Positions 9,768-10,454 of a stretch of DNA of 64,000 nucleotides are shown piece by piece. The first letter of the stretch is position 1. Each line of letters opens with the position of its first letter. Position numbers and translations under genes: made by a program. Under the pieces are notes generated by a model, which saw only the letters and a list, made by a program, of their open reading frames with translations, made no database searches and was not told the origin of the DNA. This DNA is from Urechidicola croceus (GTDB taxonomy: Bacteria > Bacteroidota > Bacteroidia > Flavobacteriales > Flavobacteriaceae): contig CAJIZG010000001.1 of NCBI GenBank assembly GCA_905181865.1, positions 682,001-746,000 on the forward strand, in the 5' to 3' direction.

Positions 9768-10454
9768 TTACTTTACTTCTTTAAAAAAAGTCTTTAACTT
9801 CCCAATATTTTTAACTCCTGGCACATCTTCAAATCCGCTATTAAGATCTAATCCTATACATTTATTATGACCAAATTCTTTAATGGCATCTGCGTCTGCA
9901 GCAGAAATACCGCCACTTAATAAAAATAGAATTTCACCTTTGTAATTTTCTAATATACGCCAATCGTATTTTACGCCATTACCACCGTATTCTTTTCCTT
10001 TTGTATCAAACAAAAACAAATCACAAAATGGCTCGTAGGCTTTCGTAACTGAGAAATCAAAATGCTCATTTACTGAAAATGCTTTGATTATCTCTAATTG
10101 GTGATTGAGCGGAGTCACAATCACATTACTTTCGCTTCGACTCGTTTCGACTCCGCTCAACGACCTCTTCCCAGCAACAATCCTCTTTAACTCCTCACAA
10201 TATCCAACAGACTCGTCGCCATGCAATTGAACTGCATTTAACTGATGCTTTTTTACAATGCCTATAACAGTTTCAATTGTTTCATTTACAAAAACCCCTA
10301 CTTTTTGAATGGATTTATCAATGCACACTTGCGGAAATTCCGCAACAAAACGCTTCGATTTATCATAAAAAATAAATCCTATATAATCCGGATTCAATGC
10401 TGTCAAATCCTTCAAATTTTGCGCCTGGCGCATTCCACAAACTTTTATTTTCAT
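9768..10454 (-). CDS. trpF: Phosphoribosylanthranilate isomerase (start at MKIKVCGM)
   Basis: KVCGMR, QLHGDES, FLLSGGISAADA motifs; the upstream MTSN codons of the ORF track lie in repeat DNA. Confidence 0.95.
   Translation of the reverse strand: MKIKVCGMRQAQNLKDLTALNPDYIGFIFYDKSKRFVAEFPQVCIDKSIQKVGVFVNETIETVIGIVKKHQLNAVQLHGDESVGYCEELKRIVAGKRSLSGVETSRSESNVIVTPLNHQLEIIKAFSVNEHFDFSVTKAYEPFCDLFLFDTKGKEYGGNGVKYDWRILENYKGEILFLLSGGISAADADAIKEFGHNKCIGLDLNSGFEDVPGVKNIGKLKTFFKEVK
10105..10160 (-). repeat. Palindromic repeat inserted in-frame within trpF
   Basis: TTGAGCGGAGTC...GACTCCGCTCAA perfect 12-bp arms; encodes SLSGVETSRSESNVIVTPLN; same architecture as the intergenic copy at 55476-55525. Confidence 0.8.

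What the first reader, a model, noticed from the sequence alone, without database searches (positions are those of the whole stretch)
10105..10160. Palindromic repeat inserted in-frame inside trpF
The element TTGAGCGGAGTCGAAACGAGTCGAAGCG...GACTCCGCTCAA has 12-bp inverted ends and matches the intergenic copy at 55476-55525 (TTGAGCAGAGTCGAAACAAGTCGAAG...TTCTGCTCAA), with looser copies at 49438 and 52731/52787. In trpF it is translated as about 20-30 extra residues (RIVAGKRSLSGVETSRSESNVIVTPLNHQ) between ..GYCEELK and IIKAFSV, apparently at a loop, and the frame stays open. This is analogous to Rickettsia palindromic elements, which invade protein-coding genes.
Basis: partly seen in the sequence, partly recalled or inferred. 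Interest (0 to 1): 0.8.

Follow-up and report, generated by a model that had tools for sequence, protein, structure and literature searches.

The report
Palindromic repeats repeatedly invade TrpF loop
A short palindromic DNA repeat sits in frame inside the tryptophan-synthesis gene trpF, and relatives across the Flavobacteriaceae carry different repeats at the same protein loop, so one harmless loop of an ordinary enzyme has been invaded many separate times by apparently selfish DNA.

Summary
trpF (9768-10466, minus strand) carries an in-frame palindromic doublet (10101-10163) of a repeat found about 37 times in the genome. Uninvaded TrpF has 24-28 residues between QLHG and KAF; here there are 51. 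AlphaFold2 puts the extra residues in a disordered loop between helix alpha-4 and strand beta-5, the barrel face away from the active site.

The bigger result is recurrence. In 69 Flavobacteriaceae genera sampled mostly one genome each, 18 have inserts of 8 or more residues at this one site, while every other position of trpA-G has none. The inserts belong to several repeat families, in different frames, sometimes stacked. A TrpABCD tree needs 50 changes of state; well-supported branches force at least 11, 7 and 4 changes for three families. In that sample the loop holds a recognisable repeat as often (10/68) as trp intergenic gaps (41/409). One neighbouring gene (a deoxyinosine-glycosylase-like protein) has a second such loop.

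Best reading: REP/REPIN elements land at random, and stop-free in-frame copies survive in a permissive loop. The Rickettsia analogy is fair, but REPs inside genes are already known elsewhere. New here: massive convergence on one site. The mobilising enzyme is not shown.

The parts
9768..10466 (-). trpF, phosphoribosylanthranilate isomerase, 232 aa (Met at 10466; a second in-frame Met, MKIKV, at 10454)
   Evidence: ORF; Pfam PF00697 E 3.9e-36; fold match to T. maritima PRAI 1nsj
10092..10184 (-). Codons 95-125, the expanded alpha-4/beta-5 loop (about 26 residues beyond the uninvaded loop)
   Evidence: Homologue alignment; model pLDDT about 55 for residues 101-120
10101..10163 (.). Family-C palindromic doublet inside trpF
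   Evidence: hairpin of the insert -30.2 kcal/mol
10142..10163 (-). First unit in reading direction: TCGTT-GAGCGGAGTCGA-AACGA
   Evidence: 5 of 5 stem pairs
10101..10124 (+). Second unit: GTGATT-GAGCGGAGTCAC-AATCAC, core with two changes
   Evidence: Read; 6 of 6 stem pairs
55476..55525 (+). Intergenic copy of the same family
   Evidence: L011
52732..52825 (+). Two intergenic copies of the same family (motif at 52738 and 52794)
49439..49487 (+). Intergenic copy of the same family (motif at 49453)
10462..10539 (.). Family-D doublet in the trpC-trpF gap
9685..9765 (.). Family-D units in the trpF-trpB gap
   Evidence: centres 9698, 9750
11345..11408 (.). Family-B doublet in the trpD-trpC gap
   Evidence: centres 11356, 11397
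12440..12465 (-). Family-E unit in the trpG-trpD gap
   Evidence: centre 12453

Best explanation
The insert is a REPIN-type element: two palindromic REP units in inverted orientation, belonging to a dispersed family with a constant 12-nt core and a short stem. It landed in the codons for the surface loop between helix alpha-4 and strand beta-5 of TrpF. That loop lies on the barrel face away from the active site and tolerates extra, disordered, hydrophilic residues. Insertions are presumably made wherever the element can go. Those that keep the frame and contain no stop survive here because the protein does not care, so the loop behaves like an intergenic spacer. The same has happened many times, with different REP families, across the Flavobacteriaceae; old inserts decay into loop-length variation. 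SHOWN: insertion, frame, repeat family, independent recurrence, site exclusivity among the trp and his genes examined, predicted disorder. INFERRED: neutrality, retained enzyme activity, and mobilisation by a RAYT-type HUH transposase (own or relatives').
For: Repeat: 37 copies in the own genome against 2 in the control. Family B, the commonest recognised insert elsewhere, is multicopy in 17/17 genomes with 0 in the reversed control. Site: in 69 genera (mostly one genome each), inserts of 8 or more aa occur 18 times at TrpF core position 92 and nowhere else in trpA-G. Eight his genes of 20 repeat-rich genomes show none except up to 9 aa in hisA. Recurrence: 50 state changes on a TrpABCD tree, with well-supported branches forcing at least 11 (B), 7 (C) and 4 (A). 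The window's closest relative, 84% identical over TrpABCD, has family B there. Frames differ: LSGVE in the window, TERSRS in congeneric L262. Stacked inserts: C remnant plus B (L257), A plus B (L240). Spacer-like behaviour: loop occupied in 10/68 against 41/409 trp gaps, reversed control 0/68 and 1/409. In close pairs the insert diverges like the gaps. Structure: barrel pLDDT above 90, insert about 55, between H87-99 and E125-132. Not trp-specific: a second protein has the same kind of loop, 16/54. The identical TrpF is held on 5 contigs (P0001), which speaks against an assembly error.
Against: About half of the longer loops (41 of 77) match no recognised family, so their REP origin is inferred. 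No intact RAYT was found in the window's genome: its three Y1_Tnp matches are broken and not flanked by these repeats. Few RAYT-like genes of relatives have such repeats nearby. Well-preserved B and C inserts show fewer synonymous changes than the TrpF core in some pairs, which could mean selection or homogenisation, although operon gaps behave the same. No activity or expression data exist.
Confidence: 0.84

Rival explanations
1. Selected RNA function: the hairpin in trpF mRNA tunes translation or decay of the trpF-B-A transcript and is repeatedly recruited, with the protein loop merely making room.
For: REPs are dense in trp and his operon gaps (576 and 408 per 100 kb). Family-C stems covary copy by copy. 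Preserved inserts have few synonymous changes in some pairs.
Against: Only 18 of 75 longer loops keep a significant inverted repeat. Many genera have no insert at all. A non-trp protein has the same kind of loop. Gap enrichment is shared by the his operon, so nothing is special to trpF. Insert divergence equals that of gaps.
Confidence: 0.08
2. Target-site preference: the DNA coding for this loop is a preferred insertion target for the mobilising enzymes.
For: One site among about 2,070 core positions takes all the inserts of 8 or more residues.
Against: Insertion points vary over roughly ten codons or more (for example offset 11 in L254, 23 in the window, 27 in L255). Several unrelated families use the zone. 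A second hotspot lies in an unrelated gene.
Confidence: 0.05
3. One ancient loop extension, inherited and diverged, that only looks repeat-like.
For: Some clades do share an inherited insert (for example L271/L272/L328; L257/L258/L259).
Against: Insert-free and differently filled sisters are interleaved on the tree. Inserts match multicopy genomic repeats. The uninvaded length is uniform in other Bacteroidota.
Confidence: 0.02
4. Assembly artefact or pseudogene.
For: None found.
Against: Frame open, conserved motifs intact, good Pfam match; same protein on 5 contigs; inserts present in finished single-contig genomes.
Confidence: 0.01

Closest known systems
Intragenic REPs, GTAG- and CGTC-tagged superfamilies (Di Nocera et al. 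2013, PMC3733652)
   Same: Short palindromic repeats, mostly inverted dimers, read in frame as 20-30 residues inside genes of several bacteria; mostly located between co-directional and convergent genes. CGTC repeats are reported from Bacteroidetes.
   Different: There different genes are hit at different sites; the only shared site they note is recB in two Xanthomonas species. Here one site of one enzyme is hit many times in one family. The window's own element (family C) lacks the CGTC tag; family B, in relatives' trpF and in the window's trpD-trpC gap, fits it.
Rickettsia palindromic elements (RPE)
   Same: Palindromic repeats inserted in frame in functional genes.
   Different: Different phylum, not an intracellular host, no sequence kinship tested, and single-site recurrence. 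RPE-4 and RPE-6 are CGTC-type REPs according to PMC3733652.
REPINs with RAYT transposases (PMC3116915, PMC2817692)
   Same: Two inverted REP units forming a hairpin, dispersed in tens of copies, mostly outside genes.
   Different: No intact RAYT found in this genome; found inside a coding sequence.

Membership tests
REP / REPIN | Short palindromic unit, repeated in tens of copies or more, mostly outside genes | tested here: met
   37 copies; most of the 30 inspected places lie between ORFs
REP / REPIN | Unit can fold as a hairpin | tested here: met
   Family C: stem positions 2-4 paired 81-88% against 39-47% in shuffles, several pair types
REP / REPIN | Two units in inverted orientation (REPIN) | tested here: met
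   10101-10124 (+) and 10142-10163 (-)
REP / REPIN | Mobilised by a RAYT (Y1 transposase) in the genome | tested here: inconclusive
   Only broken Y1_Tnp remnants in G000, not flanked by these repeats; RAYT-like genes occur in some relatives, few with nearby repeats
CGTC-tagged REP superfamily | CGTC/TGTC tag, 8-9 bp stem beginning AT, 4-5 nt loop | tested here: not met
   Window element C has no such tag; families B and D (relatives' trpF, trp gaps) fit, for example CGTC-ATGCTGAA-CTTGT-TTCAGCAT
Rickettsia palindromic elements | In-frame insertion into a conserved protein, at a position predicted to be a loop | tested here: met
Rickettsia palindromic elements | Sequence kinship with an RPE family | not tested
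   RPE sequences were not compared; kinship is not claimed
TrpF (PRAI, PF00697) | Domain match and fold | tested here: met

The most novel reading that the evidence does not exclude
The TrpF loop is a conserved landing pad whose invaders are kept because their hairpins act in the trp mRNA or DNA, so that the family keeps swapping unrelated palindromes into one regulatory position inside a coding sequence.
Probability: 0.08. Interest if true: 0.8.

Novelty: new variant of a known kind. Interest (0 to 1): 0.62.

Why it matters
Cases of palindromic repeats inside genes have been scattered, one gene and one site at a time. Here dozens of natural insertions, of different age, family and frame, sit in one small, structurally well-known enzyme that can be assayed by complementation. 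That makes the fate of selfish DNA turned into protein (tolerance, decay, possible use) directly measurable, and gives a natural map of where a (beta/alpha)8 barrel accepts new sequence. It also warns that loop length and indels in these genes are poor phylogenetic characters, and that recurring strings such as HAELVSAS, QVQHD or ERSRS in flavobacterial proteins can be translated repeats.

Tried and rejected
(1) trp-operon-specific attraction: repeats are dense in trp gaps (240 per 100 kb against 12 in other intergenic DNA), but his operon gaps are as dense (408 against 576 in the same genomes), so dropped. (2) trpF as the only invaded gene: of 33 gene families examined, a deoxyinosine-glycosylase-like family has a second recurrent site, so the claim is one of few, not unique. 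(3) Nucleotide-level selection on the insert: low synonymous change in some pairs looked striking, but alignable gap DNA is equally conserved and that alignment favours conserved pieces; left open. (4) Inverted-repeat significance as the sole criterion is weak, 18 of 75, because older inserts have decayed. (5) RAYT next to the repeats in the own genome: not found. (7) Pfam does not name the second hotspot protein; NCBIfam TIGR04274 matches below its cut-off. (8) Literature searches for TrpF with palindromic inserts found nothing relevant in the held library, which is not proof of absence.

Full report
WHAT IS THERE. The window is a Flavobacteriaceae chromosome piece (G000:C1:682001-746000) carrying a complete trpE-G-D-C-F-B-A operon on the minus strand. 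trpF (9768-10466) is open for 232 codons and matches PF00697 and the T. maritima PRAI fold. It is two hairpin units in inverted orientation: 10101-10124 and 10142-10163. Both share the core GAGCGGAGTC and have arms that differ between the units but pair within each (GTGATT/AATCAC and TCGTT/AACGA).

THE REPEAT. The motif occurs 6 times in the window (0.39 expected) and 37 times in the genome against 2 for the reversed control. Across 32 copies of the own genome the 12-nt core is constant (it was the search key, one mismatch allowed) while stem positions 2-4 are paired in 81-88% of copies against 39-47% after shuffling the arms, with several pair types; 72 copies from relatives show the same at stem positions 1-4. 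So it is a hairpin-forming REP family ('family C' here). Most of the inspected genomic copies lie between ORFs.

THE PROTEIN SITE. Among 120 homologues the stretch between QLHG and KAFSV ranges widely and carries visibly different translated repeats. In other Bacteroidota it is almost always 24-28 residues. The AlphaFold2 model has barrel confidence above 90 and about 55 for residues 101-120, between helix 87-99 (alpha-4) and strand 125-132 (beta-5). That loop is on the N-terminal face of the (beta/alpha)8 barrel, away from the active site (established knowledge of the fold).

RECURRENCE. Of 400 family genomes searched, 377 have trpF, and the insert-free query splits in two at about residue 90-94 in about 38 genomes from 35 genera. 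In 69 genera, sampled mostly one genome each, inserts of at least 8 aa occur 18 times (at least 5 aa: 31 times) at TrpF core position 92; all other positions of the seven trp proteins have none of 8 or more. This sample was filled partly towards longer matches, so 18/69 is an approximate rate; the contrast with the other positions does not depend on it. Recognised families in the loop are A (CATTACGAGGA), B (CTGAACTTGTTTCAG) and C (GAGCGGAGTCGA), with further palindromic types unclassified. On a TrpABCD tree of 115 operons the loop class needs 50 changes (shuffled mean 60.5); well-supported branches force at least 11 for B, 7 for C and 4 for A. Changes may be gains or losses. In the window's own small clade of five, three have B and two have C, and the two C inserts are in different frames (LSGVE against TERSRS), so they are separate events. 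Stacked inserts (C remnant plus B; A plus B; two C copies in P0024) show successive landings. Family B is multicopy in all 17 genomes tested, with no control hits.

WHY THIS SITE. Repeats occupy the trpF loop in 10 of 68 operons and trp gaps in 41 of 409, with reversed controls 0 and 1. The loop thus takes repeats like a spacer, although only in-frame, stop-free copies can survive there. In 20 repeat-rich genomes the his operon gaps are about as rich as the trp gaps, while his genes hold almost none. In 33 gene families of the neighbourhoods, one other protein, a DNA-deoxyinosine-glycosylase-like protein near the trp operon, shows the same behaviour at one loop (16 of 54 loci). Insertion points within the TrpF loop vary over ten codons or more. 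This combination favours a permissive protein loop over a DNA target site or a trp-specific function.

HOW IT WORKS. The most likely course: REPIN elements move or are copied within the genome, mostly into spacers; copies falling into essential codons are lost; copies in this loop are kept if in frame. Mobilisation by RAYT-like Y1 transposases is inferred from the general biology of REPs. The window's genome has only broken Y1_Tnp remnants, while some relatives have intact RAYT-like genes, few with these repeats nearby. Neutrality is supported by decay of the palindromes (18 of 75 significant) and by divergence like that of gaps, but is not proven; pairs of well-preserved inserts show unexpectedly few synonymous changes.

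WHAT IS KNOWN. REPs inside genes, including in-frame dimers encoding 20-30 residues, were described in several bacteria, and RPE-4/RPE-6 of Rickettsia conorii were placed among the CGTC-tagged REPs; the only shared site noted is recB of two Xanthomonas species (PMC3733652). Families B and D here fit the CGTC description; family C does not carry the tag. No report of this TrpF hotspot was found in the held library. The kind is known; the massive convergence on one protein loop is the new variant.

Noticed in passing
L253:14483-15313 (-), L260:386-1132 (+), also L322, L263, L248, L231: A deoxyinosine-glycosylase-like (UDG superfamily) protein near the trp operon has a second recurrent repeat-insertion loop, between PRIHQF and RIIKTVSLT; 16 of 54 loci have 8 or more extra residues.
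   Followed up: partly
window 49460, 52745, 52801, 55483, 10112, 10152 and L001-L030: Family-C repeats keep a constant 12-nt core while the short stem differs from copy to copy but stays complementary.
   Followed up: yes
window 9685-12465; his operons L337-L356: Intra-operon gaps of trp and his operons are far richer in REPs (400-580 per 100 kb in 20 repeat-rich genomes) than other intergenic DNA nearby; in the window most trp gaps longer than a few bases hold one, from several families.
   Followed up: partly
pairs L257/L259, L227/L238, L271/L272: Inserts and alignable operon gaps differ less between sister species (about 1-16%) than four-fold sites of the trp genes (25-52%); the cause is unknown and alignment bias is possible.
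   Followed up: partly
L033, L035, L062 and others: Open frames of about 610-630 codons suggest in-frame trpF-trpB fusion in several relatives.
   Followed up: no
L005, L013, L029, L030: Other ORFs of the window's genome of 230 aa or more that contain a family-C unit; not checked against homologues.
   Followed up: no
L046, L047, L048: Three broken Y1 (IS200-like) transposase remnants in the window's genome.
   Followed up: partly
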